Positions 32,755-39,790 of a stretch of DNA of 64,000 nucleotides are shown one piece after another. Below the pieces are notes generated by a model. That model saw nothing but the letters and a program-made list of their open reading frames with translations. It had not been told where the DNA came from and searched no databases. Position numbers and translations under genes: made by a program. How positions within the stretch are numbered: the stretch's first letter is position 1; each line of letters starts with the position of its first letter. This DNA comes from Marchantia polymorpha subsp. ruderalis (lineage: Eukaryota; Streptophyta; Marchantiopsida; Marchantiales; Marchantiaceae). Location: positions 17,434,501 through 17,498,500 of the forward strand of contig AP031351.1 of the NCBI GenBank assembly GCA_037833965.1, given 5' to 3'.

Positions 32755-33037
32755 TCTATCACCATTAGTTACTACACCTATCGTATGGGAGTATTCCCCA
32801 GAGGGTGTTTGTTTGCTGGATCTTTTTGGAGGGATCAGCACGGATTTGGCTGTAGTGTTGCAGTAAGGTATTCTTGTACGTAGATACTTGTACGTGGAGA
32901 AGGACGAGACTGCACGTCGGGTTTCTTCACAACATGTTACACAGTTGATGCAACGTTTTCATTTGTTGTTGCCGCGATCAGCTGTTCGAGGATACCAGAA
33001 GGCGTTGCCTTCAGACATTTCATTGTTGGGGGCGCCA
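32755..33037 (+). pseudogene. Element B C5-cytosine DNA methyltransferase, N-terminal part
   Basis: Carries cytosine-methyltransferase motif I (LLDLFGGISTDLA, 32813-32851), the SAM-binding loop, and motif II (YVEKDETARRV, 32891-32923). One in-frame TAA at 32864-32866 interrupts it. The frame reads up to the insertion of element C at 33038 and resumes at 39064 without change of phase after one copy of the 5-bp duplication cgcca. It lies directly after the RGG-rich nucleocapsid tail. The enzyme would transfer a methyl group from SAM to cytosine C5, presumably on element DNA. Confidence 0.87.
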
Positions 33038-33444
33038 TGTAACACTAGGGTTTAGAGAGAGCTCACTCGAAGATAGAAACGTAAACTCTAAAGATGAGAG
33101 ATACCAACAATGGTTCTCCTCTCCCTTATATAGCTCTCACCAACAAGTACAAGGAGATAAGATCTAATCCCCACCATCCATCCCACTCCTAGTGGATAGA
33201 TGACGTGGCGGATAACCCTAAAAAGCACACGGATTGCTGACGTGACGCACCCAACTAACACACTCAATCCTTACCTACAAGCACACGGATTGCTGACGTG
33301 GCATTGTCAACTAACACATCCACTGTGTACCTACCAAGTGCGCGGATCGCTGACGTGGCAACTATAACTAGTGCACATTAAAGTATCTACATCAATATTT
33401 AAAGTAACCTCTACTTTAGTTCTAACTAACTAAAGATGGTTACA
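33038..33444 (-). repeat. Element C 3' LTR
   Basis: 407 bp, tgtaacactagggttt ... gatggttaca on the plus strand. It retains a TATA motif (minus strand gctatataaggg) that the other LTR has lost. Several gctgacgtggc-type repeats lie in the middle. The PPT aaaaggagggaggtt (minus strand) adjoins it at 33445-33459. Confidence 0.92.
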
Positions 33445-33476
33445 AACCTCCCTCCTTTTAAGATGCAACGTCCTCG

Positions 33477-33655
33477 TTGCATAGACGTTCAAACTCATGA
33501 ACTATCAAAGGTGCATTTGCTAAATTTTTAGCTGGTTCCCAAGTTGATTCATACGATGGATAGCCTTTCCATTGAATCAAATACTCTACTTTGGGATATT
33601 TATGACCTCAAATACGTTTCTTGAGTATCTTTTCTACTTCAAACTCCTCATGATC
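33477..33655 (-). pseudogene. Element C chromodomain
   Basis: Translation gives FEVEKILKKRI, a stop, then VEYLIQWKGYPSYESTWEP and KNLANAPLIVHEFERL, the classical chromodomain of chromoviruses that binds methylated histone H3. It follows the integrase after a frame change. Confidence 0.88.
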
Positions 33656-35009
33656 TGCTATCAAGGTTAGAAGAGGAGGTGATGCTGGTTGGTTGGTTGG
33701 TGAATTGTTTTGGTCGTGGTACATGTTTTCGCAATCGTGACACATGAAGTACTGGATGTATTTTCATATGTGACGGAAGTTCCAACTTGTATGACACTTC
33801 ACCAACACGCTTCAAAACCAAAAATGGACCAATGAACCGAGGGTTCAACTTTGGTGTTCCTACAAGAGACAAATTCGTTGTAGATAACCAAACATGATCT
33901 CCAACCTCAAAAACCACTTCTCTACGATGAGCATCGGCATGCTGCTTTTGCCGATTTTGAGCTATCACCAACTTTTCCTTGGCCTGATGTAGGCCTCGGT
34001 GAATATGCTCCACAAATTCGTTCACTGCAGCAACTTTGGTCAAAAACTCCTCTCCTTTGGGAAGTCTCATCAAACTTGAAGCAGTTATAGTATGAGCTCC
34101 ATACATAAGAAAAAATGGAGACACTTTTGTGGATGCATTAACAGAATTGTTATATGCAAATTCCACAAGTGGCAAAAGGTTATACCACTCTTCTTGCTCT
34201 TCTAATGTGAATGCTCGTAGCATATCCTCTAGGGTTCTATTTGCCCTCTCAGTTTGTCCATCAGTTTGAGGGTGATAGGCTGTTGACATTGCTAGTTTTA
34301 TTCTAAAAAAACAAAACAAAGTTTTCCAAAATAAACTAGTGAAGTGAGTACCTCTATTCGTGATTAACACTTTGCTTAAGCCATGATTCACAAAAACTGC
34401 ATCTAGATACAATTGAGCTAGTTGTGGAGCTGTAACTGTTTTTGTGGTTGGCCTGATGTGAATCATCTTGCTCAATTTGTCCACAAAAACCACCACTGAA
34501 TCATGTCATAACGAAGTCCTTGGTAACTCACATACAAGATCCATGGTGACATGTTCCCACCGTTGTTCGGGAATAGGAAGAGGCTGTAATAAACCCGCTG
34601 GTTTTTGATTACTTGCCTTGTTTTATTGACAAGCAACACAACTTCGAACATAAAACTCCACATCCTCACGTATTTTGGGCCAATAGTACACTCGTTGTAT
34701 ACTCTCCACGGTTTTCTCCACTCCCACATGACCTGCAATGGCTGTATCATGACTTTCTGCCAAAATCATTGTGCGCAAATCGTGATCTTGTGGAATCCAT
34801 ATACGCTGATTGTAAAACGCCAAACTTGGAGATTTCTCGGCCTTTCCAGTTTGTAGTGCCAGAGTGATCTCTTCATCCTCCTTTGTGGCTTGTGACATCT
34901 TGCTCCACCAATCCGCCTGAATTTTCACTTTTGCAACATGATTCAAACAAGGCATGCATGTGAGAGCATCTGCAAGTTGCTTCTTTCCCTCCACGTACAC
35001 AATCTTCAT
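33648..35009 (-). pseudogene. Element C integrase
   Basis: 34623-35009 holds the end of RNase H and the H2C2 zinc-binding module (ESHDTAIAGHVGVEKT ... CVACQ). 33648-34496 holds the catalytic core (VVFVDKLSKMIHIRPTTKT, HPQTDGQTERANRTLEDML) and the GPFLVLKRVGEVSYKLELP C-terminal module. The second catalytic Asp is replaced by Asn in LITNRGTHF. A stop separates the two frames. Confidence 0.88.
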
Positions 35010-38552: not shown

Positions 38553-38670
38553 CTCTCTCTACATGCAGATGAATGACCTCTGCCAGTCTCTATACACTCT
38601 CAAGACTACACTTCATCATCACTCACTTGCTATTCCATGACGGGTAATCCACACTCAAGGAAAGAGCAAG

Positions 38671-38685
38671 GTCGCTCTGATACCA
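38671..38685 (-). other. Element C primer-binding site (initiator tRNA-Met)
   Basis: Minus strand reads tggtatcagagcgac, one base from the 5' LTR. The first 12 bases match the usual plant PBS complementary to the 3' end of initiator tRNA-Met. Confidence 0.9.
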
Positions 38686-38686
38686 T

Positions 38687-39058
38687 TGTAACACTAGGGT
38701 TTAGAGAGAAGCTCACTCGAAGATAGAAACGTAAACTCTAAAGATGAGAGATACCAACAAGTACAAGGAGATAAGATCTAATCCCCACCATCCATCCCAC
38801 TCCTAGTGGATAGATGACGTGGCGGATAACCCTAAAAAGCACACGGATTGCTGACGTGGCGCACCCAACTAACACACTCAATCCTTACCTACAAGCACAC
38901 GGATTGCTGACGTGGCATTGTCAACTAACACATCCACTGTGTACCTACCAAGTGCGCGGATCGCTGACGTGGCAGCTATGACTAGTGCACATTAAAGTAT
39001 CTACATCAATATTTAGAGTAACCTCTACTTTAGTTCTAACTAACTAAAGATGGTTACA
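38687..39058 (-). repeat. Element C 5' LTR, TATA-less
   Basis: 372 bp, matching 33038-33444 except for a few substitutions and a 36-bp deletion between two accaaca copies. The lost segment includes the TATA motif, so this promoter LTR is probably silent. Confidence 0.9.
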
Positions 39059-39790
39059 CGCCAAACCTCGATCGAGTTGGACATATCGATTTGGTGATTG
39101 CGGGATGGCCATGTCAGGGGTACACACGCGCTGGGCATGGAGCAGGATTACATGACCCGAGATCTCGGATGTTTTGGTAGATGCTACAAGTGTTACGTCA
39201 TCTCCAGGAGCAGCAGACACGTTCTCCCGCATACATTCTAGAGAACGTACCATTGTTGGGTGACACTCGGACCCAGTTGATGGCGAGTGTCCATGAGGTC
39301 AGGGCATGGATTGGATCAGCAGTGTTGTTGGATGCTGCGAGGGTTGGTTTACGTGCTCATCGTGCACGTTTATGGTGGACCAACCTTGTGCCACTAGAGA
39401 TATTGCGTCATGCGTATGATTTTGTGCATCGCGATCCTACACTAACTGTTGATAGGATCTTGGATGTCTCTCGATACTCTCAGGTGGTGAGAGTTGCTGA
39501 CAGGTCACCTATGGCATTGGTGAATCGCGTAGGTAAGCCTCGGATGGCTTTACCTACGTTAGTTAGTTATCCGACATCATATACATATCGTGATGGTGGA
39601 CCTGGACTACTGTGGGACAGTACCCTACATCAGTTGGTGGAGCCCAACGCCGATGAGAGAGAGTGTGCGATGGGATTTCTGACTGGTGTGACCGCGGCTT
39701 CTTTAGTTTCAGAGGCGTCGCGTCGTCAGGTTTAGGGTCAGACTATGGACTTGAACTGCTTGACGTGGATTGTGAGCTTGGGTTTGGCCG
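39059..39790 (+). pseudogene. Element B C5-cytosine DNA methyltransferase, catalytic C-terminal part
   Basis: Continues the methyltransferase after element C. Motif IV AGWPCQGYTRAG carries the catalytic Cys (codon 39112-39114). HDPRSRMFW follows, then motif VI ENV (39241-39249), motif VIII HRARLWWTN (about 39358-39384), a target-recognition-like segment, motif IX RECAMGF (39658-39678), and motif X-like VxGQTMDLNCLTWIV at about 39727-39773. In-frame TAG codons at 39178 and 39733 interrupt an otherwise intact reading frame. With the N-terminal part, all major catalytic motifs are present in the canonical order, without the MET1/CMT accessory domains; the compact domain resembles the catalytic part of DNMTs alone. 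Confidence 0.9.

What the first reader, a model, noticed from the sequence alone, without database searches (positions are those of the whole stretch)
32755..39790. A cytosine DNA methyltransferase encoded inside a plant-genome Ty3/gypsy retrotransposon
Motifs I, II, IV (PCQ with catalytic Cys), VI (ENV), VIII, IX and a motif X-like end occur in canonical order on the same strand as gag and RT and lie between them. Element C interrupts the gene, but the frame resumes exactly across its 5-bp TSD, so the domain predates that insertion. DNMT-carrying retrotransposons are known from dinoflagellates and charophyte algae; I do not know of this combination in a land plant. Self-methylation could hide or silence new copies. 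The stops show this copy is dead, so functional relatives should be sought.
Basis: partly seen in the sequence, partly recalled or inferred. Interest (0 to 1): 0.92.

Follow-up and report, generated by a model that had tools for sequence, protein, structure and literature searches.

The report
DNA-methylating retrotransposon family in liverworts
A liverwort genome carries well over a hundred copies of a jumping gene that encodes its own DNA-methylating enzyme and ends in unusual split repeats; relatives with a similar enzyme are named from other liverworts, peat mosses and green algae.

Summary
The window's 28288-51677 is a decayed element with a Ty3/gypsy-type pol and a DNMT3-like cytosine methyltransferase, interrupted by elements C and D. 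Its genome (241 Mb; Marchantia polymorpha-like by protein names) gave 150 scored DNMT matches (a cap); 24 of these keep frames of 1348 aa or more. Architecture: Gag-CCHC-protease-DNMT, an in-frame UAG with CARYYA (167 of 173 exact-context copies), then RT-RNaseH-integrase-PHD finger. DNMT dN/dS between two subfamilies is 0.12. Named relatives are liverworts and Sphagnum; named green algae have a second layout with the DNMT between RNase H and integrase. The ends are B...A-GC-B-A (split direct repeats) with exact 4-bp target duplications in 8 of 8 readable copies, and a 10-12-nt self-complementary primer site in 5 of 5. I infer self-primed reverse transcription, then integrase cutting a two-LTR circle inside one LTR. 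Closest known: KnitGypsy-Dnmt3 of the alga Klebsormidium (2018). Apparently new: land-plant hosts, DNMT before the readthrough stop, PHD finger, 4-bp duplications. Enzyme activity and purpose are untested.

The parts
28284..28287 (.). 5' target site duplication ATCC, in a minus-strand copia element
28288..28561 (+). B1: 5' terminal split repeat; holds a TATA-like sequence and the palindrome AACTCGAAGAACTG-T-CAGTTCTTCGAGTT
   Evidence: (94% to 51348-51566)
28562..28573 (+). putative self-primer binding site CTCGAAGAACTG, directly after B1, complementary to CAGTTCTTCGAG in B
   Evidence: the 10-mer CTCGAAGAAC has 5 matches in the window, 4 of them in B1, after B1 or in B2, vs 0.11 expected
31511..32751 (+). 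Gag remains with CCHC knuckles (frame-shifted; protease region deleted between 32683 and 32699)
   Evidence: Gag and CCHC hits below Pfam's cut-off; comparison with L011
32759..33037 (+). DNMT first part, motif I (stop TAA at 32864)
33038..39058 (-). nested element C (interrupts the DNMT; TSD CGCCA 33033-33037 and 39059-39063); not part of the system
39064..39803 (+). DNMT second part: motif IV PCQG, VI ENVP, VIII RAHRARLWW and C-terminal motifs (stop TAG at 39733)
   Evidence: PF00145 E=2e-9
40027..40035 (+). readthrough site between ORF1 and Pol: TAA CAACTA here; TAG CARYYA in most other copies
40030..41178 (+). reverse transcriptase and first part of RNase H (frame-shifted)
   Evidence: RVT_1 E=1e-34, RT_RNaseH_2 E=3e-9
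41179..49046 (-). nested element D (interrupts RNase H; TSD GAGC); not part of the system
49051..50677 (+). rest of RNase H, integrase (H2C2 and DDE core)
   Evidence: RNase H; integrase by reading, domains on copy L011
50845..51000 (+). PHD finger at the integrase C-terminus
   Evidence: by reading; PF00628 E=9e-11 in L011
51153..51162 (+). polypurine tract AGGGGGGCAA
51163..51273 (+). A1: internal copy of split repeat A
51270..51279 (+). A1|B2 junction GACA-AC-TGTC (palindrome GACAGCTGTC in other copies)
51276..51566 (+). B2: internal copy of split repeat B
51567..51677 (+). A2: 3' terminal split repeat, ends GACA
51678..51681 (.). 3' target site duplication ATCC

Best explanation
The feature is a decayed copy of a multi-copy, partly young retrotransposon family with a Ty3/gypsy-type pol that carries a DNMT3-like cytosine methyltransferase as a conserved part. 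SHOWN by sequence: the domain order, the conserved UAG-CARYYA stop between the Gag-PR-DNMT frame and the RT-RH-INT-PHD frame, purifying selection on the DNMT, the split repeats, 4-bp duplications, the self-complementary primer site and the palindromic A-GC-B junction. INFERRED: (1) Transcription starts in B at CAGTTCTTCGAG, and that RNA end folds back on the site after B1 to prime reverse transcription, as in Tf1. (2) Readthrough makes Gag-PR-DNMT abundant and the Pol extension rare, so the DNMT is packaged with Gag in the particle. (3) The finished cDNA has LTRs of form A-GC-B; its ends join into a two-LTR circle, and the DDE integrase cuts the palindrome GACA^GC^TGTC inside one LTR, leaving B at one end and A at the other. 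(4) The particle-borne DNMT methylates the element's own new DNA, and the PHD finger steers integration by reading histone H3. Step 4 is the least certain.
For: Genome copies: 150 scored of 345 candidates; 24 of the 150 with frames of 1348 aa or more and no stop in the match; 20 of those 24 fetched; ORF1 1355-1365 aa in 20 of 20; ORF2 1042-1045 aa in 15 of 20. Domains. Readthrough: TAG in 167 of 173 sites that keep CARYYA and the downstream context, CARYYA in 167 of 173 that keep TAG and that context; exact matches only, reversed-pattern control 0. Selection: dN/dS DNMT 0.124, RT 0.064, INT 0.068, PHD 0.162 between subfamilies. DNMT3 likeness: best PDB match DNMT3A E=6e-12, aligned over motifs I-VIII in unrearranged order; the 50 Foldseek rows listed are DNMT3A, 3B or 3C entries. 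Ends: exact 4-bp TSD in 8 of 8 copies with both ends in hand. Junction palindrome in 10 of 10 copies read; GACAGCTGTCATG at 185 places genome-wide vs 2 for the control. Self-primer at offset 0 in 5 of 5, although repeat A is only about 75% alike between the subfamilies. Age: B1 and B2 of one copy are 100% (L014), 99% (L017, L021) and 94% (L011, window) alike. Taxonomic spread.
Against: No activity, expression or methylation data were used. The window copy against four relatives shows C-to-T change of 0.068-0.076 at CHG but only 0.038-0.041 at CG and 0.034-0.036 at CHH, so it gives no fossil of CG self-methylation. The AlphaFold model is mediocre (pLDDT 66; TM about 0.35 to DNMT3A, rmsd about 13 A), and most of its C-terminal half is unsure. 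Start site, TATA box and priming are read from sequence only. One of 20 fetched copies (L017) lacks CARYYA (CAACAA). The dN/dS set was chosen for open frames. The circle was not observed. Some relatives with the DNMT before RT (P0153-P0155, P0158, P0160, P0168, P0170, P0264, P0266) have both in one predicted protein, so a stop between them is not universal. Some RT copies lack the DNMT.
Confidence: 0.65

Rival explanations
1. A host methyltransferase gene was inserted into, or captured by, this one copy by chance.
For: The window copy alone could be read so; the DNMT is interrupted and dead.
Against: The DNMT is at the same place in 117 of 150 RT copies, in the same frame as Gag and protease, under purifying selection, and in other bryophyte genera.
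Confidence: 0.01
2. The DNMT works on the host rather than on the element: it methylates host chromatin or rival elements, or titrates or mimics host silencing, as a counter-defence or super-infection control.
For: The fusion with Gag-PR does not exclude nuclear activity; high copy number; pairing with a PHD finger.
Against: Nothing here tests it. The M. polymorpha methylome passages that I saw name five host DNMTs and no element-borne one.
Confidence: 0.2
3. The split repeats arise by template switching or recombination between ordinary LTRs, or by a DIRS-like process on a circular template, rather than by integrase cutting a two-LTR circle.
For: B-ORFs-A-B-A is the arrangement of DIRS elements, which need no DDE integrase; K. 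nitens elements were described so.
Against: Pfam found a DDE integrase and no tyrosine recombinase in ORF1 and ORF2 of L011 and L019; 4-bp duplications and TG..CA ends in 8 of 8; the 2-nt spacer GC is present internally and absent at both ends, as staggered cutting of the junction predicts.
Confidence: 0.25
4. The methyltransferase acts on RNA (for example genomic RNA or tRNA) rather than DNA.
For: Motif IV is PCQG, not the PCN of DNMT3A, and tRNA methyltransferases (DNMT2) also match weakly (E=0.007-0.02).
Against: DNMT3A is the better match by about nine orders of magnitude; retrotransposon DNMTs were reported to methylate CG in DNA de novo (abstract of PMC5890265).
Confidence: 0.06

Closest known systems
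KnitGypsy-Dnmt3 of Klebsormidium nitens (de Mendoza et al. 2018, PMC5890265; abstract, section 9 and passages read)
   Same: Gypsy-type pol, intronless Dnmt3-like DNMT under purifying selection (Ka/Ks < 0.2 there, 0.12 here), DIRS-like repeat arrangement.
   Different: There the DNMT is described as part of the Pol polyprotein ORF; here it ends the Gag-PR frame before a UAG-CARYYA stop. PHD and target site have 0 occurrences in that main text; figures and supplements were not seen. No protein named Klebsormidium was among my listed hits, so common descent is untested.
SymbioDIRS-Dnmt3 and SymbioLINE-Dnmt of Symbiodinium (same paper, passages)
   Same: Retrotransposon with a cytosine DNMT; the DIRS form has split repeats.
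   Different: Tyrosine recombinase or LINE machinery there; DDE integrase with target duplications here.
DIRS/PAT retrotransposons (partly recalled)
   Same: Split direct repeats A...B-A-B.
   Different: Integrase type, 4-bp duplications, Gag-PR-RT-RH-INT domain set.
Tf1/Sushi and plant Tcn1 chromoviruses (Neumann 2019, PMC6317226, passages read)
   Same: Predicted self-priming of reverse transcription.
   Different: PHD finger instead of chromodomain, DNMT, split repeats; RT phylogeny not tested.
Animal and plant DNMT3
   Same: Motif order and best sequence match.
   Different: Pfam found no ADD or PWWP in ORF1 of L011 or L019; PCQG in motif IV; no intron in the open frames read; fused to Gag-PR.

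Membership tests
Ty3/gypsy LTR retrotransposon | RT-RNaseH-integrase order with Gag and aspartic protease | tested here: met
   RT, RNase H, integrase by Pfam; Gag weak by Pfam; protease by motif LLDSGA and by Pfam in relatives
Ty3/gypsy LTR retrotransposon | Identical long terminal repeats at both ends | tested here: not met
   Ends are B and A; the only complete A-GC-B unit is internal
Ty3/gypsy LTR retrotransposon | RT falls in a named gypsy clade by phylogeny | not tested
   no named reference RT set was at hand
DIRS-like element | Split direct repeats | tested here: met
DIRS-like element | Tyrosine recombinase and no target duplication | tested here: not met
   DDE integrase rve E=5e-14, no recombinase hit; 4-bp duplications 8 of 8
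KnitGypsy-Dnmt3-like element | Dnmt3-like DNMT within a Gypsy element with DIRS-like repeats | tested here: met
   description
KnitGypsy-Dnmt3-like element | DNMT in the Pol ORF | tested here: not met
   DNMT is upstream of the conserved stop, in the Gag-PR frame
KnitGypsy-Dnmt3-like element | Sequence kinship with the K. nitens copies | not tested
DNMT3 methyltransferase | Unrearranged motif order with catalytic PC, ENV and the HR-type motif VIII | tested here: met
   N184 and H222 invariant, P139, C140, E183, R225 at 90% or more in 20 relatives
DNMT3 methyltransferase | Groups with DNMT3 in a tree | tested here: inconclusive
   50 element DNMTs stand apart (100/100) from only 4 reference sequences, with long branches meeting among the latter
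Tf1-like self-priming element | RNA 5' end complementary to the primer site after the U5 end | tested here: inconclusive
   10-12 nt of complementarity at offset 0 in 5 of 5; the RNA start itself is inferred
Chromovirus | Chromodomain at integrase C-terminus | tested here: not met
   PHD finger and no chromodomain hit in L011 and L019

The most novel reading that the evidence does not exclude
A green-lineage-wide group of retroelements (green algae to bryophytes) carries a 'divided DNMT3': the catalytic domain moves with Gag, and a histone-reading PHD finger sits on the integrase. These elements use a third mode of retroelement integration, in which a DDE integrase cuts a two-LTR circle at a palindrome inside the LTR, so that every integrated copy keeps the circle junction as an internal record. 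In retroviruses such circles are regarded as dead ends.
Probability: 0.4. Interest if true: 0.9.

Novelty: new variant of a known kind. Interest (0 to 1): 0.76.

Why it matters
The paper closest to this describes DNMT-bearing retrotransposons from dinoflagellates and one charophyte alga. A multi-copy family with open frames in what looks like the model liverwort, with relatives in Sphagnum and green algae, makes it testable why an element would encode the kind of enzyme that usually silences it. The split-repeat ends with a DDE integrase also open the question of whether retroelements can integrate from a circle. Plant DNMT surveys and gene annotation are affected too: some of these proteins stand in public databases as 'hypothetical protein' or 'DNA (cytosine-5-)-methyltransferase'.

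Tried and rejected
Chance host-gene insertion: rejected by genome copies. Ordinary LTR element with one damaged LTR: rejected, because open-frame copies have the same B...A-GC-B-A ends. Stop at 40027 as mere decay: rejected by 167 of 173 copies. DNMT-less sister family: not found, but 16 of the 25 RT copies without a listed DNMT were not inspected. CG-methylation fossil in the window copy: not seen. Search of viral contigs with P0001: no match; the tool warns that records near the window's genome may be left out. A K. nitens relative was sought with the third protein search and not seen by name. The tree does not settle whether the two layouts (DNMT before RT, DNMT after RNase H) come from one capture: the second is one group with support 48/3, P0170 is a long branch, and the 'first layout' label in that tree covers every row not seen as the second, fragments of unknown order included. 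Literature searches. I saw no paper there on DNMT-bearing gypsy elements in land plants, but only an open-licence library is held, and I read listings, passages and one section, no whole paper and no supplement. Recalled, from no call: that CARYYA is the TMV-type readthrough context, the Tf1 mechanism in detail, the DIRS replication model, and that retroviral two-LTR circles are dead ends.
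Full report
OBSERVATION. The window holds a decayed gypsy-type element on the + strand, 28288-51677, sitting in a minus-strand copia element. Its cytosine methyltransferase lies in two pieces around nested element C. The second piece hits Pfam DNA_methylase at E=2e-9; RT and RNase H hits, and Gag and CCHC hits below Pfam's cut-offs, lie in order around it.

THE FAMILY IN THE GENOME. The window's assembly is held (G000, 241 Mb, 9 contigs). 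A 49-residue DNMT probe gave 150 scored matches out of 345 candidates, the 150 being a cap. By my count 24 of these 150 keep an open frame of 1348 aa or more without a stop in the match; I fetched 20 of the 24. All 20 show an ORF1 of 1355-1365 aa, and 15 of 20 an ORF2 of 1042-1045 aa in the same frame after a single stop. Proteins 97-98% alike over the DNMT are named Marchantia polymorpha, so I take the genome to be M. polymorpha or very near it; the genome itself is unnamed.

ARCHITECTURE. ORF1: Gag, two CCHC knuckles, an aspartic protease motif LLDSGA, then the DNMT (residues 952-1288 in L011). ORF2: RT, RNase H, integrase with H2C2 and DDE core, then a PHD finger at E=9e-11. The stop between them is TAG in all 20 fetched copies, followed by CARYYA in 19 of 20. 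Genome-wide, TAG stands before 167 of 173 sites with CARYYA and intact downstream context, and CARYYA follows 167 of 173 TAGs with that context; the reversed-pattern control gave 0. Only exact matches were counted, so decayed copies, the window's own among them, are left out. This is what programmed readthrough needs, and not what decay would give. The window copy has TAA CAACTA and has lost about 440 residues with the protease.

SELECTION AND CO-OCCURRENCE. Between the two subfamilies (8 and 12 copies), dN/dS is 0.124 for the DNMT (20 of 20 copies used), 0.064 for RT (18 of 20), 0.068 for integrase (16 of 20; one has a stop) and 0.162 for PHD (18 of 20). The copies were picked for open frames, which favours low values, but dS is about 0.3-0.4. 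A Gag segment was set up in that script and gave no line. Of the 150 best RT copies (of 2733 candidates), 117 have the DNMT at the canonical distance, 8 elsewhere on the strand within 12 kb, and 25 none in the capped lists. Of the 9 of these 25 that I inspected, one has the DNMT, one keeps only its last 19 residues, one is a Gag-to-RT deletion, one shows a B unit and five show no match to L011 or L019 there.

ENDS. Open-frame copies start with B (TGTCATG...) and end with A1-GC-B2-A2 (...GACA). In the 8 copies where both ends are in hand, including the window, an exact 4-bp duplication flanks them: ATCC, TCTT, TACT, GGTT, AAAG, AGTG, ATGT, GTGC. In L027 only two flanking bases were seen (they fit); for the other fetched copies one end was not in the pieces fetched or not found. 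The internal A|GC|B junction is the palindrome GACAGCTGTC in 10 of 10 copies read, with one change in the window. 185 exact GACAGCTGTCATG lie in the genome against 2 for the control; some of these are probably unrelated palindromes. Directly after B1 lies CTCGAAGAAC(TG), complementary to CAGTTCTTCGAG inside B, over 10-12 nt at offset 0 in 5 of 5 copies from both subfamilies. Repeat A is only about 75% alike between the subfamilies. By eye, a TATA-like sequence lies about 28 nt before CAGTTC. A starts right after a polypurine tract. B1 and B2 of one copy are 100% (L014), 99% (L017; L021 over 226 nt) and 94% (L011, window) alike, so some insertions are young.

MECHANISM. Read together, the cDNA made from such an RNA would have LTRs of form A-GC-B. 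The integrated form is what results if the two ends are joined and one LTR is cut inside, at GACA^GC^TGTC on both strands, with loss of the 2-nt overhang. I infer this; no circle was observed. The DNMT's place before the stop means that it would be made with every Gag-PR chain and packaged with it; self-methylation of new cDNA is the likeliest use but is untested. The window copy's own decay gives no CG-specific signal (C-to-T about 0.04 at CG, 0.07 at CHG, 0.035 at CHH against four copies); the CHG excess would fit host silencing.

THE ENZYME. Best PDB match by sequence is DNMT3A (E=6e-12), then DNMT3B, DRM-type enzymes, bacterial enzymes and DNMT2. The motif order is unrearranged, unlike DRM. 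The predicted structure of P0001 is only fair (pLDDT 66, TM about 0.35), yet the 50 Foldseek rows listed are all DNMT3A, 3B or 3C entries. In the host genome I found two DRM genes (L038, L039) and one DNMT3-like gene (L037). A 2018 paper lists five host DNMTs (MET, two CMT, two DRM) for M. polymorpha, with 0 occurrences of DNMT3.

RELATIVES. 184 proteins matched the DNMT piece, 120 listed, named ones from M. polymorpha, M. paleacea, Riccia sorocarpa, Calypogeia fissa and Sphagnum troendelagicum; Sphagnum fallax was added. P0073 (Riccia), P0120 and P0125 (Marchantia) join DNMT to RT. A second layout, RT-RNaseH-DNMT-integrase-PHD, or a part of it, appeared in 9 of 50 proteins. In 92 of the 97 new proteins the order is that layout or a part of it, 64 of them complete; the query there was itself of that layout, so the share is biased. 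Among them are Monoraphidium neglectum and Chlamydomonas eustigma (complete) and Cymbomonas tetramitiformis (no PHD found). In a tree of 50 element DNMTs and 4 references (DNMT3A, one host DNMT3-like, two DRM), the element DNMTs stand together (100/100); all named land-plant rows fall in one group of 14 (100/98); the second layout is one group only weakly (48/3). One ancient capture with later relocation, or two captures of related enzymes, both remain open.

COMPARED WITH WHAT IS KNOWN. de Mendoza et al. 2018 described DNMT retrotransposons in dinoflagellates and in the charophyte K. nitens, the latter a Gypsy with a DIRS-like repeat arrangement and Dnmt3 in the Pol ORF. A 2025 survey repeats this for streptophytes and dinoflagellates and names a ChloroDNMT group without calling it an element in the passages shown. 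Self-priming is known in plant Tcn1 chromoviruses. In ten searches I saw no report of such elements in land plants, nor of a PHD finger or 4-bp duplications in them; the library is partial, and I saw listings, abstracts' beginnings, passages and one section, no supplements. I therefore call it a new variant of a known kind.

Noticed in passing
proteins P0213, P0243, P0246 and the 64 complete proteins: Green-algal and metagenomic gypsy polyproteins carry the DNMT between RNase H and integrase, most with a PHD finger at the end: a second layout that may predate land plants.
   Followed up: partly
window 41179-49046: Element D is a gypsy-type element with one open frame of 1590 aa (42061-46833, minus strand) and a 4-bp duplication (GAGC): apparently recent.
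   Followed up: no
L037 (G000:C6:12459429): A host DNMT3-like gene (motif IV PCQD) in the liverwort genome, while a 2018 methylome paper lists only MET, CMT and DRM enzymes for M. polymorpha.
   Followed up: partly
P0236: A DNMT-gypsy polyprotein is filed in a public database under a Minisyncoccia bacterium MAG, probably contaminating eukaryotic DNA.
   Followed up: no
G000 contig C1 (5.6 Mb): The shortest contig whose length was shown, perhaps a sex chromosome, carries 15 of the 167 exact readthrough sites on about 2% of the genome.
   Followed up: no
window 31595-32690, 32755-33037, 39063-41178 and 49047-51003 vs L011, L014, L016, L017: C-to-T decay of the window copy is about twice as high at CHG sites as at CG or CHH sites.
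   Followed up: partly
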